A stretch of DNA of 30,935 nucleotides from a virus: positions 1-30,935 of the IMG/VR virus record IMGVR_UViG_3300025586_000019. The stretch is one strand, 5' to 3'. The notes under the pieces were generated by a model, which was given only the letters and a program-made list of their open reading frames with translations, did no database searches and was not told the DNA's origin. Each line of letters begins with the position of its first letter. Within the stretch, counting starts at the first letter, position 1. Below are positions 1-27,040 of this stretch, piece by piece. The position numbers and the translations under genes were made by a program.

Positions 1-56
1 TTATGGCGGTCGCCTTTGCTTTTAATTTAGAATGAGTATAAATAAGAAAAGATAAA

Positions 57-146
57 ATGAAATTAGGGTTGTTACATTTAGATTGGCAGGTCGTTCTAGT
101 CGGCAGTAATGCGAATAACAGTGGCAACGATAAGAAAAATAAATAA
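57..146 (+). CDS. Small 29-residue hypothetical peptide
   Basis: Unrecognised. A short complete frame opens at ATG 57 and closes at TAA 144-146; it begins MKLGLLHLDWQVVLVG and ends in a polar tail rich in Asn and Lys. The upstream purine stretch (AAGAAAAG) is only a weak ribosome site. The 56 bases before it hold the tail of a truncated frame and nothing I can identify. It may be real, since this end of the window is packed with very small genes, but composition alone cannot prove it. Confidence 0.35.
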   Translation: MKLGLLHLDWQVVLVGSNANNSGNDKKNK

Positions 147-173
147 GTATTATTCATTTACTTAGGAGGTAAA

Positions 174-521
174 ATGAAAAAACTAATGATTACATTGGTA
201 ATAATTATATTGGCAATGAGCCTATCCGCAGAATACATCTTGCGGAATGCTGAAAGCGGTACTAAATTTGAAGAATTTGAATATCTGCAAGGCGGGATAT
301 TGTTTCGTTTTGATTTCAAGCAGGTCGATGTTCCGGGAATAGAAGGCGAAATAACGAAGATTTGGAGATACAAGGAGATTTGGCTTCCGGATACGACCGA
401 TAAAACTGCTCTTAATGAGATAATCAAAGATGAAAAAATTGGAGATAAAGCAAAATCTGATAATCTTGAAATTTGGAGAAGAAATACAATAAAATCTAAG
501 CAAATATTGAGGATAAAATGA
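174..521 (+). CDS. Secreted hypothetical protein with signal peptide
   Basis: Unknown function. Residues 1-19 form a classic signal peptide (Lys-Lys, then a run of Leu/Ile/Val, then SLSA) with probable cleavage before EY, so the mature protein of about 96 residues should be exported to the periplasm. No lipobox Cys is present. The mature part is polar and charged with no recognisable motif. The start is set by a strong AGGAGG 8 bases upstream. Its stop overlaps the start of the next gene (ATGA), so the secreted protein and the following membrane protein are probably translationally coupled and may work together, for example in lysis or in altering the host envelope; that role is inference. 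Confidence 0.7.
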   Translation: MKKLMITLVIIILAMSLSAEYILRNAESGTKFEEFEYLQGGILFRFDFKQVDVPGIEGEITKIWRYKEIWLPDTTDKTALNEIIKDEKIGDKAKSDNLEIWRRNTIKSKQILRIK

Positions 522-925
522 ACCCGATCTGGAGAAAGATTTTATATGTATTATCGTTCTGGATTTACTTCATGGCAACCGGAGTGACGGAAGCGATGAC
601 CTGGAAGGGGAATATTAATCCGGATATTTATCATTACTGGCGAGCTGTCGAGTGGGCTGGATTAATTGCTTTATTTATATCGTTTCTTCTGGTGAATGGC
701 ATTCAAAAAACCTGGGAGAATCTTAAAATTGCGATATGTGCTACAATTTCCGGAGTTGGCATTTACGAGTTGGTATTCTGCAAAACAGCTTATGGTGATT
801 GGATGTACCATAAGACTTCGAGGTGGCTTTTTATATCAGAACATCCATCAAACTGGTTTTGGATTGGTTTGATAATTGTTTGCAGTATTTTTATTATTAT
901 AATGATAAGAAGTAAAAAGAATTAA
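518..925 (+). CDS. Polytopic inner-membrane hypothetical protein
   Basis: Unknown function. The 135 residues contain about four hydrophobic segments (roughly 8-26, 45-62, 71-88 and 110-129) and a basic C-terminus (RSKKN), consistent with an inner-membrane protein. It is rich in Trp, many near predicted membrane boundaries. It starts inside the stop codon of the preceding secreted-protein gene (ATGA). A holin-like role is possible because a probable peptidoglycan peptidase lies downstream at 3449, but four segments and no family motif make this only a guess. Confidence 0.65.
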   Translation: MNPIWRKILYVLSFWIYFMATGVTEAMTWKGNINPDIYHYWRAVEWAGLIALFISFLLVNGIQKTWENLKIAICATISGVGIYELVFCKTAYGDWMYHKTSRWLFISEHPSNWFWIGLIIVCSIFIIIMIRSKKN

Positions 926-932
926 AATGATA

Positions 933-948
933 CCCGGGGACCCCGGGG
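933..948. repeat. GC-only palindrome
   Basis: An uninterrupted GC tract in a very AT-rich neighbourhood: CCCGGGG, one A, then CCCCGGGG. CCCGGG occurs twice and the two halves are reverse complements. There is no T run after it, so it is not an ordinary intrinsic terminator. It lies between the membrane-protein stop and the AAGGAGG of the next gene. Confidence 0.5.
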
Positions 949-974
949 ATTAAATAAAATAAGGAGGTGCTGAA

Positions 975-1259
975 ATGCCACCAAAAGAAAAAGGAATCAA
1001 AGAAATTGTAGAATTAGCTGATGCTGTAATTGCTTTCGCTGAAGAAGCAAAGGAGAAAGCAAAAAACGGGTATACGCTTATTGAGATTGCTGGATTTTAT
1101 GATAATGTGACTGACATCATAAAAGAAGGCAAGGACTACAAAGAAATGCTTGAAGAAGGAAAAGACATCGATGTTGAGGAAGCGAAAATTCTTGCTGATA
1201 AACTCAAAAAGCTTGTTTTCACTATCGTAGAACTTTTCATCAATTTGAAAAAAAAGTAA
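975..1259 (+). CDS. Small acidic helical hypothetical protein
   Basis: Unrecognised 94-residue protein, rich in Glu, Lys, Ala and Leu, predicted almost wholly helical. Residues 9-30 (IVELADAVIAFAEEAKEKAK) look amphipathic, and the C-terminus (KLVFTIVELFINLKKK) is a hydrophobic helix ending in lysines. AAGGAGG 7 bases upstream gives a clear start. It is followed after 12 bases by a small membrane-protein gene, so the two probably share a transcript. Charged helical proteins beside small membrane proteins are common in phage lysis regions, but nothing here proves that role. Confidence 0.65.
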   Translation: MPPKEKGIKEIVELADAVIAFAEEAKEKAKNGYTLIEIAGFYDNVTDIIKEGKDYKEMLEEGKDIDVEEAKILADKLKKLVFTIVELFINLKKK

Positions 1260-1271
1260 TAGGTTAATATC

Positions 1272-1463
1272 GTGGAAACAATTAAAGATATTCTTATTTA
1301 CGTTGCTGCCGGTAGTGTTGCTTGTTTAGCTTTAGGAGCGTTATTCACTGAAATCGGTAAGCATATCAAAGGGAAGGATATTTTTGATTGGCTCGGTGCT
1401 TTTTTTACGTCACTCGGAAAGATTTTGAAAAGCATTAAAAATCTTGGAAATGGAAAGAAGTGA
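1272..1463 (+). CDS. Small membrane protein, holin-like
   Basis: A 63-residue protein starting at GTG. It has a hydrophobic N-terminal segment (about residues 6-27, ILIYVAAGSVACLALGALFT), a second weaker hydrophobic stretch (about 38-50) and a lysine-rich tail. One or two membrane spans with a basic C-terminus fit the general form of phage holins, and a probable murein peptidase is encoded downstream, but no family signature is visible. The stop codon (1461-1463) touches the first bases of the structured RNA candidate at 1462-1539. Confidence 0.5.
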   Translation: METIKDILIYVAAGSVACLALGALFTEIGKHIKGKDIFDWLGAFFTSLGKILKSIKNLGNGKK

Positions 1464-1539
1464 GTCTATGGCAGCTACATCTCTTATGTGTGAATTAAGT
1501 AGCCGGAGATGGGAACGTATGAGTCCTGGTCATAGACTC
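1462..1539 (+). ncRNA. Candidate structured leader RNA with pseudoknot
   Basis: Seen in sequence: an outer stem pairs 1462-1472 with 1529-1539 (9 Watson-Crick pairs GAGTCTATG/CATAGACTC, extended by G-U and C-G). Inside, GCTAC 1474-1478 pairs with GTAGC 1499-1503, and ATCTC 1479-1483 in that hairpin's loop pairs with GAGAT 1506-1510 beyond it, giving an H-type pseudoknot. GAGTC at 1521-1525 can compete for the 3' strand of the outer stem. The element ends about 10 bases before the GAGGGAG ribosome site of the gene at 1557. I do not recognise a known riboswitch or ribozyme class. A cis-regulatory leader or a phage small RNA are both possible. Confidence 0.45.
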
Positions 1540-1556
1540 TTTAAATTGAGGGAGAA

Positions 1557-1652
1557 ATGTCTATTGGTGAATGGTTATTAATTAGTGTAATTATTTTTTT
1601 AATTTGTGAAGTAATTTGTATTTTAGTTTCAATAAGGAAGGGGAAGAAATGA
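1557..1652 (+). CDS. 31-residue single-span membrane peptide
   Basis: Complete small frame starting at ATG 1557 behind GAGGGAG. It has a polar start (MSIGEW), one hydrophobic helix of about 20 residues (LLISVIIFLICEVICILVSI) and a basic end (RKGKK). Its TGA overlaps the ATG of the next gene (ATGA at 1649-1652), which supports real, coupled translation. The form resembles phage spanin/holin-type or other membrane micropeptides; function is unknown. The structured RNA candidate lies just upstream. Confidence 0.6.
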   Translation: MSIGEWLLISVIIFLICEVICILVSIRKGKK

Positions 1653-1939
1653 AGGAAACAAAGAAAAAAGTAGTGGAAAAAGAACTATCGGTTGAATCAT
1701 CTAAACCAAAAAACGAAATGATTGAAACAAGCTTAGATGAATTAACAAAAGGAATTTATAGTTTTGGTGATTTAGTAGGTAGGATTGTTTATGGATTTAA
1801 TACAAAATCAGAAGAAAACAATCCGCCAGGACCATATCGGTCAATCGGTGATTTAATTGAGGATTTACCCAGAGAATTGCAACGACTTAATAAAATACTT
1901 TGTGAACACATGAAGGAATTAGCAAAAGCATTATTATAA
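1649..1939 (+). CDS. Hypothetical soluble phage protein
   Basis: Unrecognised 96-residue protein. The frame could be opened further upstream, but ATG 1649 is chosen because AGGAAGGGG sits just before it and it overlaps the stop of the membrane peptide. The N-terminus is Lys/Glu-rich (KETKKKVVEKEL), the middle has a proline-glycine patch (NNPPGPYRS) and the C-terminus is helical (LPRELQRLNKILCEHMKELAKALL). It may bind the membrane peptide with which it is coupled; that is inference. Confidence 0.55.
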   Translation: MKETKKKVVEKELSVESSKPKNEMIETSLDELTKGIYSFGDLVGRIVYGFNTKSEENNPPGPYRSIGDLIEDLPRELQRLNKILCEHMKELAKALL

Positions 1940-1950
1940 CAGGAGAAAAA

Positions 1951-2124
1951 ATGAAAATCATACTGGGTAATATTGCAACAATAATTTATGTCCTTTTTTG
2001 TATTCCGGTTTTTATTTTTCGTATTATCGGAGTTTCTTTGGATATTATAACGGAAGAATATTGTAAATTAATTAATGAAATGCCGGATAGTTGGTTTGCG
2101 TGGGCTTTTTGGAGGGTAAAATGA
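1951..2124 (+). CDS. 57-residue membrane protein
   Basis: Complete small frame with AGGAG 6 bases before ATG 1951. Residues about 5-30 are hydrophobic (ILGNIATIIYVLFCIPVFIF), followed by an acidic middle and a Trp-rich end (SWFAWAFWRVK). One membrane span is likely. It ends in an ATGA overlap with the next frame at 2121, the first of three consecutive ATGA overlaps up to 2353. Function unknown. Confidence 0.55.
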   Translation: MKIILGNIATIIYVLFCIPVFIFRIIGVSLDIITEEYCKLINEMPDSWFAWAFWRVK

Positions 2125-2177
2125 AGAGAGCAATATTGATTTTGGTTTTAGTTTTGGTAAGAAAGAGGAAGAAATGA
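2121..2177 (+). CDS. 18-residue peptide, duplicated signal-sequence start
   Basis: A mini-frame reading MKRAILILVLVLVRKRKK. Its first 11 residues equal the start of the secreted protein at 2350, because a 44-bp direct repeat (2112-2155 and 2341-2384) duplicates that gene's RBS and first codons. After the repeat it gains a short basic tail and stops, overlapping the next start (ATGA at 2174-2177). It is best read as a remnant of the duplicated 5' end that now serves as a translational relay into the zinc-ribbon gene. Whether the peptide itself does anything is unknown. Confidence 0.45.
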   Translation: MKRAILILVLVLVRKRKK

Positions 2178-2353
2178 TAATATTAAAACTTTGTCCTTTT
2201 TGTGGAGGAGAAGCTGAAATGTCAAAAGAAGAAGATTTCCTTATTTGCAAGATTGAATATCCAATCATTAAGTGTAAGAAATGTCATTCGAGGACTGCTA
2301 AATGCGAAGATGAAAAATTAGCAATCGAAACGTGGAATAAGAGGGTAAAATGA
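2174..2353 (+). CDS. Lar-like zinc-ribbon protein (restriction-alleviation family)
   Basis: A 59-residue protein with the layout of the Lar/restriction-alleviation-like phage family: N-terminal LCPFCGGEAEM, a central CKKC pair, and a C-terminal E-x-W-N-K-R signature (IETWNKR). The two Cys pairs should bind one zinc. Lar of Rac prophage relieves type I restriction, but most phage members are uncharacterised, so an anti-restriction role here is inference. It starts and stops in ATGA overlaps, and the whole gene sits between two copies of a 44-bp direct repeat, as if inserted in front of the secreted-protein gene. Confidence 0.7.
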   Translation: MIILKLCPFCGGEAEMSKEEDFLICKIEYPIIKCKKCHSRTAKCEDEKLAIETWNKRVK

Positions 2354-3015
2354 AGAGAGCAATATTGATTTTGGTTTTAGTTTTTATATCCGGATTATTA
2401 TGCGGAGCGGATATCTCTTTTTATAACACGACTAAAACATTAGGAAACGATACTTTCCTGGATTTCTACAGATTGGAAATCGAAGGGAAGGCATATGGAA
2501 GTTTGGAGATTGAATCGATGTATGAATGGCTTGCCGAAGATGATACGGTTTATACTTCTTACCGGTTAAAAATTCCCTACAAATGGAAAAACTTGAAAAT
2601 ATCTATTACCAGAATTGAAATTGAAAAGCAGGAAATATTTCTGAGTCAATTAGATTTACGTTATTTGCTTGAAAAAAGCTGGTTGGTTTCCGCTGATATT
2701 GGTATTGGAAGTCAATGGATGACAGTGAAAGAAGGAAAATTACAAAAGAAGTGGAAATTTATTCTTGGGAAAAGGCTGGAAAAAGAAATAGCTCTTTGGG
2801 GTATAAATCTAAAAGTGAAATCAGAGACAGATTTTAGCACTTCAAACTTCCAGAAATTTCAAAATGAATCTAAATTAAAAATTGGATTTTTACTTGGTAA
2901 GGCAAATATTTTCGGAATTAAAATACCAGGAGTTTATTTTTCATTTTTATATGAAGTTAAGTATTACAAACAGCGATCAACGAACAGGATGACCGGGTTT
3001 GAATTTTCTTTTTAG
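2350..3015 (+). CDS. Secreted outer-membrane beta-barrel-like protein
   Basis: A 221-residue exported protein. Residues 1-20 are a signal peptide (KR, then ILILVLVFISGLLCGA) with probable cleavage before DIS. The mature part is rich in alternating hydrophobic/polar strands with aromatic residues (for example YRLKIPYKW, GVYFSFLYEVKYY) and ends in Phe (GFEFSF), the pattern of Gram-negative outer-membrane barrels recognised by the BAM machinery. About 8-10 strands would fit. A phage-borne outer-membrane protein could change host surface properties or block superinfection; this is inference. It closes the ATGA-coupled chain. Confidence 0.6.
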   Translation: MKRAILILVLVFISGLLCGADISFYNTTKTLGNDTFLDFYRLEIEGKAYGSLEIESMYEWLAEDDTVYTSYRLKIPYKWKNLKISITRIEIEKQEIFLSQLDLRYLLEKSWLVSADIGIGSQWMTVKEGKLQKKWKFILGKRLEKEIALWGINLKVKSETDFSTSNFQKFQNESKLKIGFLLGKANIFGIKIPGVYFSFLYEVKYYKQRSTNRMTGFEFSF

Positions 3016-3056
3016 GTATCGGTGTTGAACATTAATATTTTGCTTTTCTATGTGCG

Positions 3057-3100
3057 ATAGGGGTTAGACTGCCATCCCCCTATGAGAAAAAATTGGCAGT
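3057..3100 (+). ncRNA. Candidate H-type pseudoknot leader
   Basis: ATAGGGG 3057-3063 pairs perfectly with CCCCTAT 3077-3083, leaving a 13-base loop. ACTGCCA 3068-3074 in that loop pairs perfectly with TGGCAGT 3094-3100 downstream, across an A-rich linker. Two 7-bp stems in 1,2,1',2' order define an H-type pseudoknot. It lies in the 135-base gap after the outer-membrane-protein gene and 50 bases before the start at 3151, so it may control that gene or act as a separate RNA. I do not recognise a known class. Confidence 0.5.
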
Positions 3101-3150
3101 GTATAAAGTGAATTTTCTTTTTAAAAATAAATACAAGGAAGGTAAGAAAA

Positions 3151-3438
3151 ATGACAACTCCGGAATTTAGAAACATTTTAGCAGAAAGTGAACATTACGA
3201 AGATTTCTGCGATGAGCTCGATGCTTTTGTGGCAAAACACAATCTCGATGGAACTTGGGAAGCAAACGGCATTAAGTATTTTGAAGACGAACACGACTCA
3301 AACTTTACCCAAGAGGAATTGGATGAGTATATCGAACATCACGGATTAGATGGAGACACAACAACTACACAGGATTCTTTTATTTATCATTGGTATCTGA
3401 TTTATTTAGAACATGTGAGGGGTTTACAGGTCTCATAA
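3151..3438 (+). CDS. Acidic hypothetical phage protein
   Basis: A 95-residue, strongly acidic protein behind a good AAGGAAGG site. Asp/Glu are spread throughout (EHYEDFCDELDAF, QEELDEYIEH) and it contains two similar histidine-glycine-leucine-aspartate patches (HNLDGTW and HHGLDGD), which may reflect an internal repeat. High acidity can indicate DNA mimicry, as in some anti-restriction proteins, but no ArdA or Ocr signature is visible. Function unknown. The pseudoknot candidate at 3057-3100 is its leader. Confidence 0.6.
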   Translation: MTTPEFRNILAESEHYEDFCDELDAFVAKHNLDGTWEANGIKYFEDEHDSNFTQEELDEYIEHHGLDGDTTTTQDSFIYHWYLIYLEHVRGLQVS

Positions 3439-3448
3439 TTCAGTTATA

Positions 3449-4015
3449 ATGTATATTCTCGATCATAAAAAATTCTGTTTACAGGAATTAGTTTGGAAAT
3501 CGATTTATGATTATTATCAAGCTAAGGGTCAATTATGGGTTTTATGGAGAAAGTTTGATCCGAATTTCCTGAAAACCTTAGAGCAACTTCATTCTATTTT
3601 CGGAACTGCTGTCATTAATAATTGGAGTTTCAAGAATCCAATAAGCTGGCTCAATAACCAGGTTTTTGAACATTCCGGAGCGAGACCTTTAAATCTCGTA
3701 TGCAATCCCAGTGAATGTGAATTTTTTATAGCCGGAAATCCATTTATTATTGCAAGTGAAAAAAAGCTTTGGGGTCAAGGAACGACTCATTGCGATTGGA
3801 ATACTGCTGATGTTAAATTCAAACGATGCTATTCTGATAAATATGAAAGACGTAAAAAGAATTATGATGAGATCCGTGAACAGATATTAGATAATCCTGA
3901 ATTGTTTCCGTATATTACAGTTCTGGAAAGTGGTGATTATGCTCCTACTTGGCTGCATGTTTCAACAGGTAACTTTGATCATGAAAATAGAAGTGTGAGG
4001 ATCGTAAAACCATAA
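3449..4015 (+). CDS. Putative M15-type murein peptidase (endolysin-like)
   Basis: A 188-residue protein with features of the D-Ala-D-Ala carboxypeptidase/M15 fold used by phage endolysins: a HSGARPLN segment, a central THCDWNTADV stretch that could supply the first zinc His and Asp, and a late TWLHVS that matches the W-x-H-V zinc-binding motif. M15 enzymes cut peptidoglycan cross-bridges and release progeny. The match is divergent and made by eye. No clear ribosome site precedes ATG 3449, which suggests coupling to the gene ending 10 bases upstream. The stop codon (4013-4015) lies inside the right end of attC-like site D. Confidence 0.5.
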   Translation: MYILDHKKFCLQELVWKSIYDYYQAKGQLWVLWRKFDPNFLKTLEQLHSIFGTAVINNWSFKNPISWLNNQVFEHSGARPLNLVCNPSECEFFIAGNPFIIASEKKLWGQGTTHCDWNTADVKFKRCYSDKYERRKKNYDEIREQILDNPELFPYITVLESGDYAPTWLHVSTGNFDHENRSVRIVKP

Positions 4016-4058
4016 CAGCCACTCCTTCCCTTCGGAAAGGTAGTTTGTTGTTATGGGC
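4010..4058 (-). repeat. attC-like recombination site D
   Basis: Read on the minus strand: outer box GCCCATAAC, spacer, inner arm ACTACCTTTCC, 4-base loop, inner arm GGAAGGAGT, spacer GGCT, outer box GTTATGG. The inner arms match except for two unpaired bases (A and T) on one side, the hallmark extrahelical bases of integron attC sites. It follows the restriction cassette and shares its ACTACC...GGAGTGGCTGTTATR framework with site E at 18058-18126. The site is nearly symmetric, with GTTAT ends on both strands. Confidence 0.65.
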
Positions 4059-4072
4059 ATCCTTAATAAACA

Positions 4073-4654
4073 TTATTTTGACCATACAATGTGACCATTA
4101 ACATCATTTTCTTCAAATACTTCTAAAATTTGAGCACAAAATTTCATCGTTTCTGTGTCTCCAATTTTCTTTGCAGCTTCATAAAGGCGGATAAACATTT
4201 TTTTCCCAGTTTCTGTTTGTTTATAATTTTTCTTTCTAAAATTATGTGTTTAACAAAGTGTTTGTCCATTCTCAATTGTAGCCTTACCACCCTTGTCTTT
4301 TGGTTTAATGTGATCAACGTGAATTTCCACTCCATCTTTCCGGCTTCGCCCACAAATTACACAACGATAATCGTCTCTTTTAAGAATTATTTCTTTTTGT
4401 GCTGGCGTAAAATTTTCTAATTCCTTTTTTACTACAAACTCAGGATCATATTTATAAACACCTTTTGCTATTTTTATTAAAAAACCATTTTGATGCAATT
4501 GTCTTATTTGTCTATCTGGGTCTCGAAAAATGTTACCAGTCCTGTTTCTAAATTCTTCTACTACCCAATCAACAATTTCTGGATGGTGGATATTACGATT
4601 AGGATTTTTCTTAAAAAATTCTATTATAATTTCTTTTTGTGTAATATTACTCAT
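4073..4654 (-). pseudogene. HNH restriction endonuclease interrupted by a stop codon
   Basis: A type II restriction endonuclease partner of the adjacent methyltransferase. N-terminal residues about 1-75 look like a winged helix (HHPEIVDWVV, then RQIRQLHQNGFLIKIAKGVYKYDP); residues about 85-135 hold an HNH/zinc domain (YRCVICGRSR, VDHIKPKDKGG, NGQTLC). Right after NGQTLC a TAA (4250-4252) interrupts the frame, but the same frame continues for 58 well-formed codons (THNFRKKNYKQTETGKKMF ... VNGHIVWSK) to TAA 4073-4075. The lost part includes the HN of the HNH core, so the 134-residue product is probably inactive. One base change would restore it. It starts 1 base after the methylase stop. Confidence 0.75.
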
Positions 4655-5461
4655 TTAAAACTCCAACATATTAGTTTCTTTAAAAATTCTCGTTTTTGAT
4701 AATTCACAATATTTTGGGTCAATATCAACACCAACACCATATCTTTTATTATTAACTGCTTCAATTATTGTTGTACCACTACCAATAAATGGGTCAAAAA
4801 CAACATCTTTCTGAAAACTAAACAATTTTATACATCTGTATGGTAGCTCTCTTGGGAAAGGAGCAGGATGACCAATTCTTTTTTTACTCTCTCCATTAAA
4901 TGTCCATAATCCATTAGTCCAATCCATAAATTCCTTTTTACTCATATCAGAAATTTTTGTTCCATTTGTTTTTTTCCATTGATCTTTAAATAATATTACA
5001 ATTAATTCAACAGGAGCAATTACATATGGTGCAGAAGCTTTCATCCAGCTTCCCCAAGCAGTTCTTCGAGAAATATTACCTTCATTCCATACGATTGTTG
5101 AATGATATTTCCACCCAACTTCTTGTGCAATTCTTGTAAGGTCTGAACCCACACTTCTATGTCCGCCTTTATTTTTATCTAATGGTATATTTAATAAAAA
5201 TCTTGCTTGGGTATTACTCCAATCATAACAATTTTTCATCCATTTTTCAGAAAATTCTAAATACGTTTCATATGATAATTCGTCATCGTTTGAATTGTAG
5301 TCAATCCCCACATTATACGGTGGCGATGTTACAATAAGATCAATAAACTCAGAAGAAAATAATTTTTTATTTAATATATCTCCCTTATATAGCAAGAACT
5401 TATCATCATCATAATAAAGAAATTTTTTACCTAAATCGTTTTTTATTTCACTTAAATTCAT
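4655..5461 (-). CDS. Type II site-specific DNA methyltransferase
   Basis: A 268-residue amino-methyltransferase (N4-cytosine or N6-adenine). The catalytic motif IV TSPPYNVG lies near residues 45-52 and the S-adenosylmethionine motif I FDPFIGSGTT near 222-231, so the motif order is the beta type (IV before I). YGVGVDIDPKYCELS follows as motif II. It protects host or phage DNA against the cognate endonuclease encoded directly downstream. With the endonuclease broken, it may now act alone as an anti-restriction or epigenetic modifier. Recognition sequence cannot be read from the sequence. It is the first gene of a cassette-like unit with an AT-rich 70-base leader. Confidence 0.85.
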   Translation of the reverse strand: MNLSEIKNDLGKKFLYYDDDKFLLYKGDILNKKLFSSEFIDLIVTSPPYNVGIDYNSNDDELSYETYLEFSEKWMKNCYDWSNTQARFLLNIPLDKNKGGHRSVGSDLTRIAQEVGWKYHSTIVWNEGNISRRTAWGSWMKASAPYVIAPVELIVILFKDQWKKTNGTKISDMSKKEFMDWTNGLWTFNGESKKRIGHPAPFPRELPYRCIKLFSFQKDVVFDPFIGSGTTIIEAVNNKRYGVGVDIDPKYCELSKTRIFKETNMLEF

Positions 5462-5527
5462 AATAAAACCTTTTTTATTTACAAATCTTTCACTTCAAAT
5501 TTAATGTCAATGAGTTTAATAAAGGAT

Positions 5528-5601
5528 GCCCATAACAAACGTGCCCACAAACAACGAGAAGAACATTTGAAAGAGTCGTGGCACACGTGAAACATTATGC
5601 G
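5528..5601 (-). repeat. attC-like recombination site A
   Basis: Minus strand: outer box GCATAATG, inner arm ACGTGTGCCAC, about 29 bases of loop, inner arm GTGGGCACGT, outer box GTTATGGGC. The inner arms pair with one extra base on one side. The gene at 5606 ends 4 bases before it. The GTTATGGGC end belongs to the start of the restriction cassette and matches that cassette's far end at 4050-4058. Confidence 0.6.
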
Positions 5602-5605
5602 AAAC

Positions 5606-5863
5606 TTAGTCTCTTTTTTTTCCCCAGTCATTATCTTGGCAATTTTCACATTCTACCCAATCACCAGATAACATTTCTTGAACATAATCTTGAATGCAAA
5701 ATCCAGGAGCACCTTCTTCTTTCATTGATTTTACGCCTTTTTTTATTGCATCAGAACATTTTTTGCAAGGGCAATTAAATATTTTCAATTCTTTAACTGC
5801 ATCTAAATTCTCAATCACGTCTCTTATTTCTTCAACTGTGTTTAATTTTTTTTCTTTGTTCAC
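5606..5863 (-). CDS. Cassette-borne Cys-rich hypothetical protein
   Basis: An 85-residue protein starting at GTG behind a strong AAAGGAGG. It contains NCPCKKC around residues 29-35, a lone FC around 56, and VECENC near 71-76, which together look like a zinc-binding knuckle. The rest is charged and helical. It is the only gene of a 357-bp cassette-like unit between sites A and B and ends just before site A. No known family is recognised; zinc or nucleic-acid binding is a guess from the Cys pairs. Confidence 0.65.
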   Translation of the reverse strand: MNKEKKLNTVEEIRDVIENLDAVKELKIFNCPCKKCSDAIKKGVKSMKEEGAPGFCIQDYVQEMLSGDWVECENCQDNDWGKKRD

Positions 5864-5886
5864 AACAACCTCCTTTATTTAACTTC

Positions 5887-5953
5887 GTATAACATAAGTG
5901 TCCACAGTAGCAAAGCAAGGTGAATTTCTGACTGGCACACTCTCTCATTATAC
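5887..5953 (-). repeat. attC-like recombination site B
   Basis: Minus strand: outer box GTATAATG, inner arm AGTGTGCCA, loop of about 26 bases, inner arm TGGACACT, outer box GTTATAC. The inner arms pair fully apart from one extrahelical G. The stop codon of the gene at 5948 lies within the outer box. This is the most canonical of the sites in layout. Confidence 0.65.
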
Positions 5954-6325
5954 ACAGCTTAGTTTTGGTTTATTGAAAACCATTTTAACTCTTTTGCAAA
6001 ATGACATATTCTTAAATTTAAGAAGTTCTGTCCGCAATGTTTTGATAATGTCATTTCCTATATCAACGTTTTTAGATAGTGAATCAATGGTGTCAAAACT
6101 CATTCCCAACATTTTTTCTACTTCTTTTGACATCCCAAAACATACTTTTTCGTTTCTCTCGTTTATAAATATTCTACCGGTTACCATTTCTGTTGTTATT
6201 TGTACGTCTTGTTCTTCTGGTTTAACTGGAATAAAACCTGATGGCAACATGCCAATTCTTGGGAGTACGGTTGGGTTGTTAGTTACTTCAAGCATCTCTA
6301 CATCTTTTAATACAAACATTTTCAT
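5948..6325 (-). CDS. Cassette-borne hypothetical protein
   Basis: A 125-residue protein with GGAGG 7 bases before its ATG. The N-terminus is compact and beta-like (MFVLKDVEMLEVTNNPTVLP), the middle holds TTEMVTGRIFINERNEKVCF, and the C-terminus is helical and basic with CKRVKMVFNKPK. I do not recognise the family. It fills a 465-bp cassette-like unit between sites B and C, and its TAA lies inside site B, the usual gene/attC spacing of integron cassettes. Confidence 0.65.
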   Translation of the reverse strand: MKMFVLKDVEMLEVTNNPTVLPRIGMLPSGFIPVKPEEQDVQITTEMVTGRIFINERNEKVCFGMSKEVEKMLGMSFDTIDSLSKNVDIGNDIIKTLRTELLKFKNMSFCKRVKMVFNKPKLSCV

Positions 6326-6351
6326 AATATCCTCCGTTTATTTTTCGCTAT

Positions 6352-6408
6352 GTATAACACTATGTCCACTCGCCACTTTGTTCTGCGTGGTACACCTGAA
6401 CATTATAT
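6352..6408 (-). repeat. attC-like recombination site C
   Basis: Minus strand: outer box ATATAATG, inner arm TGTACCAC, loop of about 17 bases, inner arm GTGGACA, outer box GTTATAC. The inner arms pair with one unpaired A. The stop codon of the broken gene 6403-6685 lies inside its left end. It is the last site I can find going towards the recombination operon. Confidence 0.55.
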
Positions 6409-6685
6409 CGCATATTTACCAGAATAAACCTTAATTTCTAAACCAGCTTGATTAATATGCTTTAACTCAAATGGCAATCCAATCTTAATCCGTTTTGATA
6501 ATTTATTTCTGGCACTTCTCGTTCCCGTTAATTTTTTCTTTTTCTTTCTTGGTAACTTAAATAATCTTTTTAACGCTTTACTATGAATTTTTAAATTATG
6601 AAATGAACATTCTAATTTCTCGGTAACAGTAATAGTTTTTTTTATTGCTGAATTTAATAATTCAAAACCAACAACAGTTTTTCAT
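6403..6685 (-). pseudogene. Frameshifted small basic protein gene
   Basis: AAAGGAG stands 6 bases before ATG 6685, but the frame from that ATG stops after 7 codons. One base over, a frame without ordinary start codons runs for about 90 codons to TAA 6403-6405 and reads VVGFELLNSAIKKTITV ... and later LFKLPRKKKKKLTG. Removing one A from the AAAAA tract just after the ATG gives MKTVVGFELL, joining start and body. The product would be about 93 residues, very basic, perhaps nucleic-acid binding. It could be a true mutation, a slippage-controlled gene or a sequencing error. Confidence 0.55.
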
Positions 6686-6696
6686 TTGGTTCTCCT

Positions 6697-8671: not shown

Positions 8672-9130
8672 TTAGGAAAACGATCCTTTCAAAATCTTCT
8701 TGAAGCGTTGTCCTTTTTTAATTTCTTCAGATAAATTATCGATATAATTTTTTGCCATCAGAACCTTAATTCCATGTATGAATTTTTCGTGTGATCTGGA
8801 ATTCTTTGAAAGGATCTGATTTTCTTTTACTAAATGCACTTCTACATCTAAATCATCAATAGTAACATAATCTTTGAAATTCCGGTAAAGTCTATCTGTT
8901 TTTTCTACTATAATAACTTTTATATCATTATCAGAGATAAATTGCAGCATTAAATTGAAATCTGTTCTTCCGGTTCTTTTACCAGTTTCGGAATCTTTGA
9001 ATTCTTTTATTATTTTAATTTTGTTTTCAGCAGCATAATTGCGTAAAAGTTCCAACTGTGCCGGTATTGAATAACCTGTCTTTTCCTGCTCCTTTGAGGA
9101 AACTCTTGAATAGGTAACTGCTTTGATCAT
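8672..9130 (-). CDS. Serine recombinase, catalytic domain only
   Basis: A 152-residue protein matching the N-terminal catalytic domain of resolvase/invertase and large serine recombinases: YSRVSSKEQ holds the nucleophilic Ser near residue 11, YSIPAQLELLRNYA follows, DSETGKRTGR and FNLMLQFI match the conserved loop, and VEKTDRLYRN supplies catalytic Arg. It reaches the long helix (IDNLSEEIKKG) and then stops; the DNA-binding and zinc-ribbon domains, which bring large members to 400-500 residues, are missing. It may be a truncated former integrase or a small stand-alone enzyme. Start overlaps the preceding stop (ATGA). Confidence 0.75.
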   Translation of the reverse strand: MIKAVTYSRVSSKEQEKTGYSIPAQLELLRNYAAENKIKIIKEFKDSETGKRTGRTDFNLMLQFISDNDIKVIIVEKTDRLYRNFKDYVTIDDLDVEVHLVKENQILSKNSRSHEKFIHGIKVLMAKNYIDNLSEEIKKGQRFKKILKGSFS

Positions 9131-18057: not shown

Positions 18058-18126
18058 TTTTATAATGCCAAACTACCCCTCTCTTGCTTTACATCTTGCC
18101 GATGTGAGGGGAGTGGCTGTTATAAA
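18058..18126 (+). repeat. attC-like recombination site E
   Basis: Plus strand: outer box TTTTATAATG, inner arm ACTACCCCTC (18072-18081), loop of 24 bases with its own ACATC/GATGT hairpin, inner arm GAGGGGAGT (18106-18114), GGCT, outer box GTTATAAAA (18119-18127). The inner arms match except for one extrahelical A. The framework ACTACC...GGAGTGGCTGTTATR is the same as in site D, 14 kb away on the opposite strand. Confidence 0.6.
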
Positions 18127-18176: not shown

Positions 18177-18332
18177 ATGTATGTGAAAATAAAAAAACTG
18201 GAAGAAGCGGGATTATCAAAACCTGAAATTGCTAAGAAAATAAAAACGAATGAAAATATGATTTACAGGGTTCTTGGTGGATCTACTGAAACTTATAGAG
18301 GTTATGCTGAACGATATAATAATGAAAAATAA
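18177..18332 (+). CDS. Small helix-turn-helix protein, N-terminus uncertain
   Basis: From ATG 18177 the frame encodes 51 residues with a clear helix-turn-helix (GLSKPEIAKKIKTNENMIYRVL). The same frame stays open upstream and would read GRKNKYSYEM, very like the MGRKTKYKP start of the small terminase gene at 18997. A GTG at 18149 would start this protein if one more G were present in the GGG run, so a one-base deletion or error is possible. The stop overlaps the next gene. It may be a regulator or a small-terminase-like DNA-binding protein. Confidence 0.5.
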   Translation: MYVKIKKLEEAGLSKPEIAKKIKTNENMIYRVLGGSTETYRGYAERYNNEK

Positions 18333-18651
18333 TGTAATTACTCTTGATGAATTGATAAGAATTCTCAGGCTTGAAAAATTCAATCAAAATGATTTTATTT
18401 TCTTTCAGGAACTCGTTGAAAAAATTATTTACTTGACACAGAATAAGCTAATTTACCGAACTGGAGTTGTCTTTTTCGGAAGGAAATTAGTTGTAATAAA
18501 TAATAAGTGTTTGGTTCTCCATTTTGCTCACGGTGTATTCGACTATCTGGAGTATAAAGACAGATGCGGAGATATTCAAACATTTAATCGCAGTTCTTTT
18601 ATTAAGTTTTCGGTATTGGAAAAACCAGATCGGACTCTCAACGTAAAATAA
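18322..18651 (+). CDS. Hypothetical protein
   Basis: Unrecognised. ATG 18322 (109 residues, MKNNVITLDELIRILRLEK) is chosen because it overlaps the previous stop; an ATG at 18304 or a TTG at 18274 would lengthen it by 6 or 16 residues. The first part is helical and the second part beta-rich (TGVVFFGRKLVVINNKCLVLHF). Its 3' end forms part of a terminator-like hairpin. Confidence 0.5.
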   Translation: MKNNVITLDELIRILRLEKFNQNDFIFFQELVEKIIYLTQNKLIYRTGVVFFGRKLVVINNKCLVLHFAHGVFDYLEYKDRCGDIQTFNRSSFIKFSVLEKPDRTLNVK

Positions 18652-18674
18652 TTACGTTCAGGTTCCGGTTTTTT
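18619..18674 (+). terminator. Terminator-like hairpin
   Basis: A perfect 7-bp stem AACGTAA/TTACGTT (18640-18646, 18652-18658) with a 5-base loop, bracketed by AAAAACC upstream and GGTTTTTT (to 18674) downstream that can pair as an outer stem. The T tract follows the outer stem. It could end the replication transcript before the packaging genes, in either direction. Confidence 0.45.
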
Positions 18675-18692
18675 ATTTATGGGAGCGAAAAT

Positions 18693-19019
18693 ATGAGCAA
18701 ATTTAGGTTTTGGAAAGAGTATAGTTTATCAAAAGATTATGAATATTTATACAATTTATTAATGGATAACGAAAAGATGAAAGTTGTATGTATCGTTAAT
18801 CATAATCATTTATCTGAAAGTTCGGCAACGGATATCGCAACGGTAGTATCTATGTCGGATTTGGATTCAGATAAAAAACAAATAGCAATTATGACGAGAG
18901 GCTATAAATACAGTGAATGGATGGACAATTTAAATTCTTTTATTATGGAATGTAGAGAACTGAATTTAGTATGGATAAATCCAATGACGGTAAATAATGG
19001 GACGCAAGACAAAGTATAA
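18693..19019 (+). CDS. Hypothetical protein preceding terminase
   Basis: Unrecognised 108-residue protein with GGGAG upstream. The centre has alternating beta and helical stretches (MKVVCIVNHNHLSESSATDI, QIAIMTRGYKYSEWM). It overlaps the small terminase gene by 23 bases, so it is probably co-translated with packaging genes. Confidence 0.6.
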   Translation: MSKFRFWKEYSLSKDYEYLYNLLMDNEKMKVVCIVNHNHLSESSATDIATVVSMSDLDSDKKQIAIMTRGYKYSEWMDNLNSFIMECRELNLVWINPMTVNNGTQDKV

Positions 19020-19458
19020 ACCGAAGACTTTTCCACGACTCGTTGGTGAGTTTGCTCGTGATGGTTATTCCGATAAAGAAATATGGAAAAAACTCGGAAT
19101 TGGAAAGGATTCTTTTTATTTATATCTAAAGAAATATCCAGAATTTTCAGAAGCTTTATACAGAAATCGGGTTTTAGTCAATGCTGAAGTTGAGGAAGCA
19201 TACCTTAAAAGAGCACTTGGTTATGATTACGATGAAGTTACAAATGAGGTCACGATATCAGATGTCGGAAAGGAAACGAAGCATAAAAGAATAACCACTA
19301 AAACCGTTGTCCCGGATGTTCGTGCCTGTGCTCAATGGTTGGAATGCAAGAAGCCGGAAATATGGAGAAAGAAGCAGGAGATAGACGTTAAACTCGAAGG
19401 CTTTAAATCATTTGCGGAATTTATGTTAGCGAAAACAAAAAATGAAACAGATAATTGA
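18997..19458 (+). CDS. Terminase small subunit-like DNA-binding protein
   Basis: A 153-residue protein with an N-terminal homeodomain-like helix-turn-helix (FPRLVGEFARDGYSDKEIWK then LGIGKDSFYLYLKKYPEF) typical of phage small terminases that bind the packaging site. The middle is helical (NAEVEEAYLKRALGYDYDEV) with a TKHKRITTKTVVPDVRACAQ strand and a CKKPEIWRKK motif common in this family. It overlaps the large subunit by 17 bases. Position and fold together make the assignment strong. Confidence 0.8.
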   Translation: MGRKTKYKPKTFPRLVGEFARDGYSDKEIWKKLGIGKDSFYLYLKKYPEFSEALYRNRVLVNAEVEEAYLKRALGYDYDEVTNEVTISDVGKETKHKRITTKTVVPDVRACAQWLECKKPEIWRKKQEIDVKLEGFKSFAEFMLAKTKNETDN

Positions 19459-20989
19459 AAAAGATATTGAATTAATTAATTCTTATCAAGATAACTGGAA
19501 TAAGTTTTCCAGAGATGTTCTGGGTGTGAAATTAGATACAGAACAGGAAGAAATATTATTTGGAGTTCAGAACAATAAAAGGGTATCGGTAAAATCCGGT
19601 CATGCCAGAGGAAAGGATTATGTAGCTGCGGTTGCTTCATTATGTTTTTTATATTTAAATGTGCCGTCAAAAGTTATAAATACAGCTCCAACGGGCAGGC
19701 AAGTAAATTTGATCATGATGACTGAAATCTCAAAAATATTCAGAAATGCTAAAATACCGCTTGGTGGTGAATTGTTGTCGAATATGATTAAATTCAATAC
19801 AATGCCGGATATTAAAACAGATGATTGGTTTTTGGTTGGATTCAAGGCTGGGGATAAAGACGTAGAAGCATGGTCGGGATTTCACTCCCCAAATATTATG
19901 GTTGTAGTTACGGAAGCAACCGGAATTGATGAAGAAAATTATAATGCTCTTGAAGGCATATTGCAAGCAAATAGCAGATTGTTAATTGTTTATAATCCGC
20001 ACAGGCTTTCAGGTGAAGCTTATGAATCATCAAAATCGCCACGTTATAAACATTTCACCATGAATTGTCTGAATGCTCCCAATGTTTTGAATTGGCAAAG
20101 ATTATTAAATAAAGAAATTACTGAACAGGAATATAAAAAACTACATATTTCGGGACAGGTTGACTGGGAGTGGATAAATGATAAAGTTCAAGCTGCTGGC
20201 TGGTGTTCTAAAATCCCGGAAGAAGAAGTGTCAAAAGAATTTTATGATTTCCAATGGATGGGAATTTGGTATCGACCTGGTAACCTTTTTCGAGTTAAAG
20301 TCTTGGGGGAGTTTCCCGAAGAAGATGAAGAAACATTAATTCCAATTGAATGGATAAATGCCGCAAATGAACGATGGAAACAATTCAGGGGTAAATTTCC
20401 TAAAGGAATGAAATTAATAGGAACAGACGTTGCTGGTATGGGAAGGGATAAAACAGCCCACGTACCACGAATAAAAGATGTCGTTTTTGAAATAAAAACA
20501 TATAGCCAGCAAGATCACATGGTTACTGCGGGACAAATTGTTAATATGCTTGCTGACTTAGATAATCTAAGCTTTATTGATACCATAGGAGAAGGGGCGG
20601 GCGTTTATTCCAGAGTTAAAGAAATGAAACCAAATCAAGTTTTTTCGGTAAAAGCATCACATTCAGCTAAATTTCTAAGAGACTTAACAGGACAGCGAAC
20701 ATTTGCTAATATGCGGGCTTATTTGTTTTGGGCTTTACGTGATTGGCTTGATCCGGCTTACAAATCAAAAGCAGCACTTCCCCCAATTCAAGAATTAACT
20801 CAAGAATTAAATGAAATTCGCTGGGAAGTTAGGAGTAATGGAGATATTATTATAGAGCCCAAAGAGGAACTGAAAAAAAGGCTTGGAAGGTCTCCTGATT
20901 ATGCCGATGCTTTAGCAAATACATTCTTTCCTTACAAAAGAAAAAAAATAACAAATCCAATAACAAAAGCGAAGCTGGGGATTTATTAG
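19442..20989 (+). CDS. terL: Terminase large subunit (packaging ATPase/nuclease)
   Basis: A 515-residue motor that pumps DNA into the head and cuts the concatemer. Walker A is VKSGHARGKD (about 50-59), Walker B with catalytic Glu is IMVVVTEA (152-159), and the coupling motif is LLIVYNPHR (about 180-188). The RNase H-like nuclease domain shows GTDVAGMGRDKTA (Asp near 329), FIDTIGEG (Asp near 380) and SPDYADALANTFF near 490. Length is normal for the family. The start overlaps the small subunit. It fits the SPP1/HK97-like head modules. Confidence 0.95.
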   Translation: MKQIIEKDIELINSYQDNWNKFSRDVLGVKLDTEQEEILFGVQNNKRVSVKSGHARGKDYVAAVASLCFLYLNVPSKVINTAPTGRQVNLIMMTEISKIFRNAKIPLGGELLSNMIKFNTMPDIKTDDWFLVGFKAGDKDVEAWSGFHSPNIMVVVTEATGIDEENYNALEGILQANSRLLIVYNPHRLSGEAYESSKSPRYKHFTMNCLNAPNVLNWQRLLNKEITEQEYKKLHISGQVDWEWINDKVQAAGWCSKIPEEEVSKEFYDFQWMGIWYRPGNLFRVKVLGEFPEEDEETLIPIEWINAANERWKQFRGKFPKGMKLIGTDVAGMGRDKTAHVPRIKDVVFEIKTYSQQDHMVTAGQIVNMLADLDNLSFIDTIGEGAGVYSRVKEMKPNQVFSVKASHSAKFLRDLTGQRTFANMRAYLFWALRDWLDPAYKSKAALPPIQELTQELNEIRWEVRSNGDIIIEPKEELKKRLGRSPDYADALANTFFPYKRKKITNPITKAKLGIY

Positions 20990-20990
20990 A

Positions 20991-21212
20991 ATGAAAATAA
21001 AATTAATTGAGAAATGCTTAGTCTGTGGCGGGACAGGAACAGAGCCAAATGAAAACAGTCTTATGAAAAAGAAAATAACGAAAAAATGTCATCACTGCAA
21101 AGGAAAGGGATTGATATGCACCGAAAAAGATGTTCGTGAAGTTAAGATTCCGATGTCTGATAAACTTCAGAAAGCAACGTTTGATGGTTATGCTTTATTC
21201 TGGGAAGCGTAA
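20991..21212 (+). CDS. DnaJ-type zinc-finger small protein
   Basis: A 73-residue protein with two CxxCxGxG motifs, CLVCGGTG (residues 9-16) and CHHCKGKG (about 34-41), as in the DnaJ cysteine-rich domain; the four cysteines should bind one zinc. No J domain is present. Such proteins are common in phage head operons, with unknown role. It starts 1 base after terL. Confidence 0.7.
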   Translation: MKIKLIEKCLVCGGTGTEPNENSLMKKKITKKCHHCKGKGLICTEKDVREVKIPMSDKLQKATFDGYALFWEA

Positions 21213-21213
21213 A

Positions 21214-21360
21214 ATGAGCGATAATGTTATAAATTCATTATTCAAGAAACTCAAAGCGGATGGAATGAAATTTCAAAAGATTTGGGATAGATTATATTTG
21301 AAGGGTGCAACTGTTATTCAGGTCAACCGGTTAATCTTACAAGAGTTTTTGGGAAGATGA
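21214..21360 (+). CDS. 48-residue hypothetical protein
   Basis: ATG 21214 follows a GGGAAG site and opens a helical, basic frame (MSDNVINSLFKKLKADGMKF ... LILQEFLGR). The frame is open further upstream across the zinc-finger gene but that part is its shadow. Two bases separate it from the preceding gene. Function unknown. Confidence 0.5.
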   Translation: MSDNVINSLFKKLKADGMKFQKIWDRLYLKGATVIQVNRLILQEFLGR

Positions 21361-21381
21361 AAAAAATAAGAGAGGTGTAAA

Positions 21382-21666
21382 ATGAAACTAAGTAAAAAGA
21401 AATTAGAAAAAATTGTAAAAAATATCAATGGAACACTAGTTATATTTGAAAATAGCAAAACAGAACTGGATGGATATAGCATTCAAGACAATGATGGCAA
21501 AATTACAGTAGTTTATGATCCAGAAATAAATAGAATTATAATGGCTTTAGACTATGGTAAAAAGCAACAAGAAACATATTCTTTTACAGTAGAATCATCA
21601 ATAGCGTTAATATTAATGCTACATAAAGCCGCAAAAATTGACATAACGGAGCTATACAATGATTAG
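21382..21666 (+). CDS. Hypothetical protein in head operon
   Basis: Unrecognised 94-residue protein with AGAGG before its ATG. Short beta strands dominate (NGTLVIFENSKTELDGYSI, GKITVVYDPEINRIIMALDYG), followed by a helical end. It lies between the terminase and portal genes. Confidence 0.6.
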   Translation: MKLSKKKLEKIVKNINGTLVIFENSKTELDGYSIQDNDGKITVVYDPEINRIIMALDYGKKQQETYSFTVESSIALILMLHKAAKIDITELYND

Positions 21667-21684
21667 ATTAAAAAGGAGCGTAAA

Positions 21685-23082
21685 ATGAAAATCCAAGAGA
21701 TTTTAAAATTAGAAGATTACGGGAAGATATTTGATAAGTTATGCGTGGATAATGTTGAGGACAGGGATATTGATAAGAATCTCGAAAATTATGAAGGCAA
21801 GCATGATATTTTAAACAGACTAAATGAAAGTATCGGCTCTGCACCGGAAGAAAAGCCAGATGGAACATTGACACCAGATACCCGAAAAACGATAATAACA
21901 ACCAAATTGGTTTTAAATCTTCAACAGAAAATTGTTAAGATGGCGGTTGCTTTTCTGTTTGGTTCGGATGTGAAAATCAAACTCAACAATCCTGAAGAGC
22001 CATTAAAAAAAGCTTATCAAAATATGTTATTGACATATAAAAACGTTAAGATTAATTCATTTAATCGAAAACTTGCAAAAGCTTGTAAAAGTGAATCTAA
22101 GGCTGCTGAACTTTGGTATATTACAAAGGATAAAGACATAAGAATTATACTTCTCTGTAAAAAGAACGGAGATGATTTCTATCCTCATTATGACGAGCAT
22201 GGAGACGTGGATGCAATAACGAGAAGATATGCTTCCGAAAATGAAAAAGGCGTTCTTATCGAACACAATGATATTCATATGGCTAAAAAAGTAATTTACA
22301 CAACGAAAAGGCAATCCGGCAATTCCTATGAAATTACAGAAAAAGAAAATTCTGTTGGAAAAATAATGATAATTTTTTCTGACCAAAAGAAACCGGATTC
22401 AGCAGATGTTCAGACTTTGATCGCCCGGCTGGAAATGATTATTTCTAAACTTGCAGATTCAAATGATCGTAATGCTTTCCCGATATTGAAGGCTACGGGC
22501 TTAATTGATACATTCCCTGATAAAGATTCAGTTGGAAAAGTATTTACCATAAAGGGGGAAGACACCGCTGCAGGAGGAATTTCATATGGAGATGTGAATT
22601 ATCTCGTAGCTCCCGACGCTGCTGAATCATTAACCTTAGAAATTGATAATTTATTGCGATTTGTCTGCTGGTTAACTGGAACAGCAAATATTAGTTTCGA
22701 TAATATCAAGGGGATTAATAGTAATCTGTCCGGTAATTCGATTAAATTAATGTTCCTTGATCCAATTTCAAAAGCAAAAGATGATCAGGAAATATTTGGA
22801 GAACATCTTGACAGAAGAAATAATTTAATGAAGGCAATATTATTGTCTTTAGATGTCAATGAAAGAGATAACTATAAAAAACTTAATCTTACAAATGAAT
22901 TTGGTTCGATTTTACCAGAATCAGATATGGAAAAAATACAAATGCTTGCAGAATCCAGACCTGGTGAAAATCTAATTGATAAACCAACCGCTGTCAAAAA
23001 TCATCCGTTTGTTGAAAATGCAGATGATGTAATCGCAGAAATGGAAAAAGAAGAAAAATTAATTGGAGGTCAAAATGTATAA
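21685..23082 (+). CDS. Portal protein (SPP1 gp6-like)
   Basis: A 465-residue portal that forms the dodecameric DNA gate at one head vertex. Features match the SPP1-gp6 family: an early YEGKHDILNR, the conserved LVLNLQQKIVKMAVAFLFG (about 74-92), a central VKINSFNRKLAKACKSESKAA, a wing with YTTKR, and late segments IEIDNLLRFVCWLTGTANIS and GNSIKLMFLDPISKAKDD before a charged end. AAGGAG precedes the ATG. It directly follows terminase, as expected. Its 3' end contains the first copy of a 28-bp repeat. Confidence 0.9.
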   Translation: MKIQEILKLEDYGKIFDKLCVDNVEDRDIDKNLENYEGKHDILNRLNESIGSAPEEKPDGTLTPDTRKTIITTKLVLNLQQKIVKMAVAFLFGSDVKIKLNNPEEPLKKAYQNMLLTYKNVKINSFNRKLAKACKSESKAAELWYITKDKDIRIILLCKKNGDDFYPHYDEHGDVDAITRRYASENEKGVLIEHNDIHMAKKVIYTTKRQSGNSYEITEKENSVGKIMIIFSDQKKPDSADVQTLIARLEMIISKLADSNDRNAFPILKATGLIDTFPDKDSVGKVFTIKGEDTAAGGISYGDVNYLVAPDAAESLTLEIDNLLRFVCWLTGTANISFDNIKGINSNLSGNSIKLMFLDPISKAKDDQEIFGEHLDRRNNLMKAILLSLDVNERDNYKKLNLTNEFGSILPESDMEKIQMLAESRPGENLIDKPTAVKNHPFVENADDVIAEMEKEEKLIGGQNV

Positions 23083-23276
23083 ATGTAAATGTTGCAGAAA
23101 GCCTTACTCTATAATCCCAAACATAAATGGTTTATGCTCTTATTGTAATAAATTACCTAAGTTTAAGCATAATTACGAAACTAAAGAAATACTTATGAGA
23201 AGAGATTTAAAAAACACAAACTCTAATCTATTACGCAAACTTAATAATAAATTAATTGGAGGTTAAAATGTATAAA
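23056..23276 (+). repeat. 28-bp direct repeat pair around the zinc-ribbon gene
   Basis: Positions 23056-23083 and 23249-23276 match except for one C/T difference. Each contains TTAATTGGAGGT, the ATG and the first two codons (Tyr-Lys). The zinc-ribbon gene lies between them, so the RBS/start segment of the next gene appears duplicated around it, as at 2112-2384. Confidence 0.85.
23075..23266 (+). CDS. Small zinc-ribbon protein between direct repeats
   Basis: A 63-residue protein beginning MYKCKCCRKPYS with CSYCNK further on; the CKCC and CSYC pairs form a zinc ribbon. The rest is basic and Asn/Lys-rich. It overlaps the end of the portal gene by 8 bases, uses GGAGG as its ribosome site, and its last residues LIGG repeat the portal's own C-terminal LIGG because both lie in a 28-bp repeat. 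Likely nucleic-acid binding; role unknown. Confidence 0.65.
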   Translation: MYKCKCCRKPYSIIPNINGLCSYCNKLPKFKHNYETKEILMRRDLKNTNSNLLRKLNNKLIGG

Positions 23277-23651
23277 GAAGCAAAACTAAAACTAAAAGCG
23301 TATTTGAACGCTTGGAAAAAACTTGATTTAAAAGAAATGCGGAAGCACACGACAAAAACCTATCGAGCTAATCACATCGATACATCGCATCTTGAAGCAT
23401 TTATGGGAGCTAAAAAGCTAACTAAATTTAAGATTTTAGAACCGAAACGAATCGGTGATGCAATGACAGAAATACCGGTTGAGATTTATTATCACATCGG
23501 AAAAGATATTTTCCATAAACTAATCAAAGTAAGATTAGGTTCTGAAAAAGAAGCCCATCAACCATATACCGGCTATCCGTGGGGAGTCAATCCGATTTCC
23601 GGTTTTAGAGAGGGAGAGATTCCAGAAAAAAAAGAGGAGAAACAGAAATGA
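23268..23651 (+). CDS. NTF2-like hypothetical head-operon protein
   Basis: A 127-residue protein; ATG 23268 is chosen behind the GGAGG of the second 28-bp repeat. The pattern of an N-terminal helix pair (LKLKAYLNAWKKLDLKEMRK) followed by beta strands (KFKILEPKRIG, MTEIPVEIYYHIG, LIKVRLG) resembles the NTF2/SnoaL-type cone fold. The tail is lysine-glutamate rich. Function in the phage is unknown. It ends in an ATGA overlap with the next gene. Confidence 0.5.
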   Translation: MYKEAKLKLKAYLNAWKKLDLKEMRKHTTKTYRANHIDTSHLEAFMGAKKLTKFKILEPKRIGDAMTEIPVEIYYHIGKDIFHKLIKVRLGSEKEAHQPYTGYPWGVNPISGFREGEIPEKKEEKQK

Positions 23652-24741: not shown

Positions 24742-24745
24742 TCAA

Positions 24746-25795: not shown

Positions 25796-25797
25796 AA

Positions 25798-25884
25798 ATG
25801 AATAATTTATTGTATAATTGGTGTTACAATTGGAATAGCCCATTCTTTATTTATTCAATGGTTAACTAAAATATTTGAAGATTA
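25798..25884 (+). pseudogene. Possible frameshifted single-span membrane peptide
   Basis: ATG 25798 opens an odd frame of 23 codons, but from about 25815 another frame reads IIGVTIGIAHSLFIQWLTKIFED, a natural-looking membrane helix with a charged end, stopping at TAG 25882-25884. One or two bases gained or lost near TTGTATAATT would join the start to it. It may be a broken or misread small membrane gene, followed by GAGGAG of the next gene. Confidence 0.35.
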
Positions 25885-25898
25885 GAGGAGATGAAAAA

Positions 25899-26192: not shown

Positions 26193-26207
26193 TTTTCAAG
26201 ATAAATA

Positions 26208-27036: not shown

Positions 27037-27040
27037 TTGG

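What the first reader, a model, noticed from the sequence alone, without database searches (positions are those of the whole stretch)
5536..6357. Two further units whose own ends match each other
For the gene at 5948, GCTGTGTATAAT at its 3' end pairs over 12 positions (two wobbles) with GTTATACATAGC at its 5' end, better than with the neighbouring unit's box. For the gene at 5606, TTCGCATAAT pairs with GTTATACGAA with one mismatch. Matching within a unit rather than across a junction is the signature of separately acquired cassettes.
Basis: seen in the sequence. Interest (0 to 1): 0.75.

Follow-up and report, generated by a model that had tools for sequence, protein, structure and literature searches.

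The report
Swappable integron gene cassettes in phage
A virus of bacteria carries a short row of integron-type gene cassettes, among them a DNA-methylating enzyme, and a near-identical virus has one cassette cleanly swapped for another, which indicates that phages exchange such genes cassette by cassette.

Summary
On the minus strand, the last bases of each of three units (genes at 5948, 5606 and the methyltransferase/HNH pair at 4250-5461) pair better with the first bases of the same unit than with any neighbour. Together they exceed 100,000 composition shuffles; the 5606 unit alone is weak. The region 4010-6411 is an integron-type cassette array: imperfect-palindrome attC sites with R"/L"/L'/R' boxes and an unpaired base on the L" side, no integrase on the contig, in a tailed-phage genome.

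The best new evidence is contig L003: the same phage (99.5% identical over 4 kb) with the methyltransferase/HNH cassette replaced by another methyltransferase cassette, with exact breakpoints at the cassette boxes. The breakpoints fall at R" boxes, not at the usual R' boxes. That is unexplained; top-strand attC recombination is one candidate. Integrase-less attC clusters with methyltransferases in phages are already published (Qi 2023, PMC9892861), so this is a new member of a known kind.

The parts
4010..4056 (-). short terminal attC-like hairpin P0 (R" CCCATAAC, unpaired A in L", R' GTTATGG), its body kept unchanged between the window and L003
   Evidence: folds at -9.5 kcal/mol, 2 of 200 shuffles as good; body identical in L003
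4050..5536 (-). cassette unit 3: methyltransferase plus HNH nuclease; its own ends GTTATGGGCATCCTT / AAGGATGCCCATAAC are perfect inverted repeats; replaced by another methyltransferase in L003
4655..5461 (-). type II N4/N6 DNA methyltransferase gene
   Evidence: PF01555 7.8e-44; PADLOC MTase_II 3.9e-94
4250..4654 (-). HNH nuclease gene cut short by an in-frame TAA at 4250-4252; the frame continues to about 4074 and an intact 194-aa relative exists in phage contig L002
5530..5600 (-). attC site 2, between units 2 and 3; its body differs in L003 although the gene before it is unchanged
5594..5893 (-). cassette unit 2 (gene at 5606-5863), own ends TTCGCATAAT / GTTATACGAA
   Evidence: gene end identical over 63 nt in L003
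5606..5863 (-). 85-aa cysteine-rich protein, no known family
5887..5953 (-). attC site 1, between units 1 and 2, with extrahelical G in L" (GTGT[G]CCA against GTGTCCA)
5947..6358 (-). cassette unit 1 (gene at 5948-6325), own ends GCTGTGTATAAT / GTTATACATAGC; the stop codon TAA lies inside R"
5948..6325 (-). 125-aa protein, no known family
6352..6411 (-). attC site 0 at the upstream edge of the array; R" GCGATATAAT matches no unit start
6406..6681 (-). open frame of the flanking gene (92 codons, start codon out of frame); not shown to be a cassette

Best explanation
Region 4010-6411 is a cluster of integron gene cassettes without an integrase, set between two convergent phage genes of a tailed phage. 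Each cassette is a small gene unit plus an attC site. When excised it is a circle in which its own first bases (R') and last bases (R") form one attC hairpin, so own ends match; in the row, each R" sits next to a foreign R', so cross-junction matches are worse. An integron integrase supplied by the host acts on folded single-stranded attC sites and inserts, removes and swaps the cassettes. The kept cargo includes DNA methyltransferases, which most likely shield phage DNA from host restriction. Shown here: own-end pairing, hairpin anatomy, phage setting, and one clean cassette difference between two near-identical phages. Inferred: the integrase, its origin, the single-strand stage and the anti-restriction role.
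For: Own-end pairing above shuffles and permutations. Junction hairpins with R, L and spacer architecture, and an unpaired base on the L" side a few pairs into the stem in most sites of the window, L003 and L046. Genes sense-oriented, stop codon in or near R" and a ribosome-binding site shortly after R' in most cassettes. Terminase and portal genes place it in a phage. L003: 99.5% identical over window 46-4054, the P0 body and 63 nt at the end of the 5606 gene identical, and between them a different methyltransferase with own ends matching at 16 of 17 positions. A second phage array, L045/L046, with two methyltransferase cassettes, attC bodies of the same type and a short terminal hairpin. Published attC clusters without integrase in phages, with five methyltransferases and five of six tested attC sites functional with IntI1 (PMC9892861).
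Against: No tyrosine recombinase on this contig or on the L003, L045/L046 and L042 contigs, but none of these is known to be complete. The R' boxes (GTTATAC, GTTATGG) depart from strict GTTRRRY after GTTA, and three of four R" end in AAT instead of AAC. The breakpoints of the L003 swap are at R" boxes, whereas bottom-strand integron recombination cuts at R'. Attributing the swap to an integrase is inference; homologous recombination between phages could have carried it after the junctions were made. No circular intermediate was seen.
Confidence: 0.87

Rival explanations
1. The palindromes are ordinary phage terminators or repeats between genes, and the end matches reflect shared terminator stems, not cassettes.
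For: P0 lies between two convergent genes and folds well; similar hairpins can be terminators.
Against: The matches join ends 300-1500 nt apart, not the arms of one stem; the L003 swap has edges exactly at the boxes; the internal junction stems fold no better than shuffled sequence, so they are poor terminators.
Confidence: 0.04
2. A recombination system other than an integron integrase (homologous recombination or annealing by phage proteins, or the serine recombinase at 8672-9130) shuffles modules bounded by short shared boxes.
For: The contig has a resolvase-type serine recombinase (PF00239 3e-21) and no tyrosine recombinase. Flanking identity on both sides of the swapped unit would allow homologous recombination.
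Against: It does not explain the asymmetric hairpins with the unpaired L" base in several phages, nor own-end pairing over 8-17 nt. Homologous recombination can spread a swapped array but not make the precise junctions.
Confidence: 0.08
3. Within the integron reading: the swap seen in L003 went through the gene-sense (top) strand of attC, with cleavage at R", so that each gene travels with the attC body on its 5' side. (Not exclusive of the best explanation.)
For: Both edges of the exchanged block lie at R" (ATAA|) boxes: the body of attC 2 changes with unit 3 while the 5606 gene and the P0 body stay. In VCR mutants, inverting one extrahelical base relocates the cut from R' to R" (PMC2727003). 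The extrahelical bases here are G or A on the sense strand.
Against: One allele pair only, and L003 ends 63 nt into the neighbouring gene. The side of the unpaired base is the canonical one. Top-strand use is about 1000-fold less efficient for known sites (PMC8946536).
Confidence: 0.3

Closest known systems
CALINs (clusters of attC sites lacking an integrase) in phages, Qi et al. 2023, PMC9892861
   Same: attC sites and gene cassettes without integrase in temperate and virulent phages, with N6_N4 methyltransferases among the cargo
   Different: uncultured phage; two alleles of one phage show a cassette swap; breakpoints at R"
Integron attC sites of the VCR and class 1 type (PMC2727003)
   Same: R"/R' pairing extended beyond 7 nt, unpaired base in L", variable centre
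   Different: R' GTTATAC or GTTATGG instead of strict GTTRRRY, R" often AAT, unpaired base G or A on the sense strand
Type II restriction-modification pair in phage contig L002
   Same: methyltransferase 72% and HNH 74% identical
   Different: L002 shows no attC-like sites beside the pair and has an intact HNH gene; here the HNH gene has a stop

Membership tests
integron gene cassette array (CALIN) | at least two attC sites in a row with short genes between, same orientation | tested here: met
   four junction hairpins around three units, all genes on the minus strand
integron gene cassette array (CALIN) | no integron integrase nearby | tested here: met
   none in the 30.9-kb record by TIGR02249 or PF00589; contig may be incomplete
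integron attC site | R" and R' of one cassette complementary | tested here: met
integron attC site | core GTTRRRY and inverse core RYYYAAC | tested here: inconclusive
   GTT present at all four R'; the following bases are ATAC or ATGG, not strictly RRRY; AAC at one of four R" and AAT at three
integron attC site | L"/L' pairing with an extrahelical base on the L" side | tested here: met
   clear at attC 0, attC 1, P0 and L003's site; less clear at attC 2, where a mismatch adjoins it; arm alignments were read by eye
integron attC site | recombination by IntI at R' of the bottom strand | tested here: inconclusive
   the one observed swap has its edges at R"; no assay possible
integron attC site | score in the IntegronFinder or HattCI model | not testable with these tools
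   models not available

The most novel reading that the evidence does not exclude
In these phages integron cassettes are swapped through the gene-sense strand, with the cut at R" and the short terminal hairpin kept as a fixed docking site, so that the moving unit is the gene plus the attC body on its 5' side: a reversed use of attC, perhaps tuned by extrahelical G or A bases on the sense strand, that lets phages exchange methyltransferases one at a time.
Probability: 0.25. Interest if true: 0.68.

Novelty: new member of a known kind. Interest (0 to 1): 0.5.

Why it matters
Phage-borne attC clusters are known, but mostly as single sequences. A pair of nearly identical phages that differ by one exact cassette is evidence of recent cassette exchange in a phage population, and both cassettes encode DNA methyltransferases, which fits turnover of anti-restriction genes. 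The R" edges also offer a natural test of attC strand choice, so far studied mainly in engineered sites.

Tried and rejected
A scan for attC-like structures by simple scoring gave many chance hits across the window, so it was not used as evidence alone. In 32 bacterial and archaeal loci with relatives of the methyltransferase, stricter scanning gave only one convincing attC-like site, in L038 beside another restriction system, so the source integron was not found. The genes at 5948 and 7400 gave no viral relatives, and the 5606 gene only the L003 contig; 5606 had no match in the phage collection and 5948 none in plasmids. Apart from the window, only the L003 contig held the P0 hairpin. The gene-antisense reading of the whole array (attC polarity on the plus strand) was considered because the plus-strand edges X|TTAT fit the swap; it was set aside because genes, stop codons, ribosome-binding sites and the side of the unpaired base all fit the minus strand. 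The host was not identified: the nearest terminase in named phages is 33% identical.

Full report
Setting. The window is a 30,935-base virus record. It carries phage terminase and portal genes, with leftward genes from about 16 to 4 kb and rightward genes on either side. The region of interest lies between the end of a rightward gene (3449-4015) and leftward genes from 6406 up.

The observation. On the minus strand the region has four junctions with palindromic boxes and three units between them. In the comparison of all ends with all starts, each unit's own start is the best partner; the end of the flanking gene at 6402-6411 pairs with nothing. The sum over the three units was not reached in 100,000 shuffles of the distal bases for 12 to 14 positions. 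The unit at 5606 alone is not convincing (0.06 at 12 positions). Across 14 cassettes of three phage arrays the effect is clear (own mean 6.5 of 8 distal positions, cross mean 3.4), with the caveat that the units of L042 and L046 were delimited by eye.

What it is. The junctions have the parts of integron attC sites: outer R"/R' boxes with GTT at the R' start, spacers of unequal length, L"/L' stems and an unpaired base on the L" side. The genes run in the sense direction, with the stop codon in or just before R" and the start codon about 28-76 bases after R'. In an integron the own ends of a cassette meet when it is a circle, and pairing beyond the 7-base box is usual (PMC2727003). So the own-end matching is what integron cassettes are expected to show. 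No tyrosine recombinase was found on the record, hence a cluster of attC sites lacking an integrase. Such clusters, with methyltransferases, have been described in phages, and five of six tested sites worked with IntI1 (PMC9892861).

The swap. L003 is a 6,293-base contig that matches window 46-4054 at 99.5%. From there it continues through the same terminal hairpin P0, then differs, then rejoins the window for its last 63 bases inside the 5606 unit, all identical. In between, the window has the methyltransferase/HNH unit and L003 has another methyltransferase (L003 5497-6150, PADLOC MTase_II 3.7e-40) whose own ends match at 16 of 17 positions. This is a one-for-one exchange with edges at the boxes. 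It carries a puzzle. The exchanged block runs from the R" of P0 to the R" of the 5606 unit, so the attC body next to the unchanged 5606 gene is replaced too, while the P0 body stays. Bottom-strand recombination would cut at R' and would move each gene with the attC body on its 3' side. Recombination through the top strand cuts at R" and would give what is seen; in engineered sites inverting a single extrahelical base decides this, and top-strand use is normally about 1000-fold less efficient (PMC8946536). One allele pair cannot settle it.

Cargo. The methyltransferase is of the N4/N6 type II kind. The HNH gene beside it has an in-frame stop, while a relative of the pair in another phage, L002, has an intact HNH gene. 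Keeping the methyltransferase while the nuclease decays fits a role in protecting phage DNA from host restriction; this is inference. The two other cassettes encode proteins without known relatives.

Other arrays. L045/L046 is a different phage with two methyltransferase cassettes of the kind in L003, attC bodies of the window's type and a short terminal hairpin ending GGCTGTTAT, like P0. L042 comes from a 46.7-kb phage contig with several attC junctions and GTTAG-type boxes. The short hairpin at the end of the row in different phages may be a docking site; this is a guess.

Verdict. The swap and its R" edges are the part worth following.

Noticed in passing
window 18060-18125, strand +: A further hairpin of the P0 type (ATAATGCCAAACTACCCC...GGGGAGTGGCTGTTATAA, unpaired A in L"), with no evident cassette beside it.
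   Followed up: partly
window 81-135 and L003 1356-1415: A short stretch repeats the end of a lectin-like gene (L003 83-1483) with changes mostly at A positions, as in the template of a diversity-generating retroelement; no reverse transcriptase on the contigs.
   Followed up: partly
L001 1-718 against window 18258-18976: A contig 99.9% identical to window 18977-30935 has a methyltransferase directly before the terminase genes where the window has another gene: a second place of gene exchange, without attC-like boxes noticed.
   Followed up: partly
window 4074-4252, strand -: The HNH frame stays open after the in-frame TAA at 4250-4252, so the gene looks recently broken.
   Followed up: yes
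window 6670-6690, strand -: The flanking gene 6406-6681 has its ATG out of frame with the rest by one base, next to a run of A: frameshift or assembly error.
   Followed up: no
L038 6546-6625: A solitary attC-like site with 10-11-base arms directly after a methyltransferase and a second gene (probably a restriction pair) in a bacterial contig.
   Followed up: no
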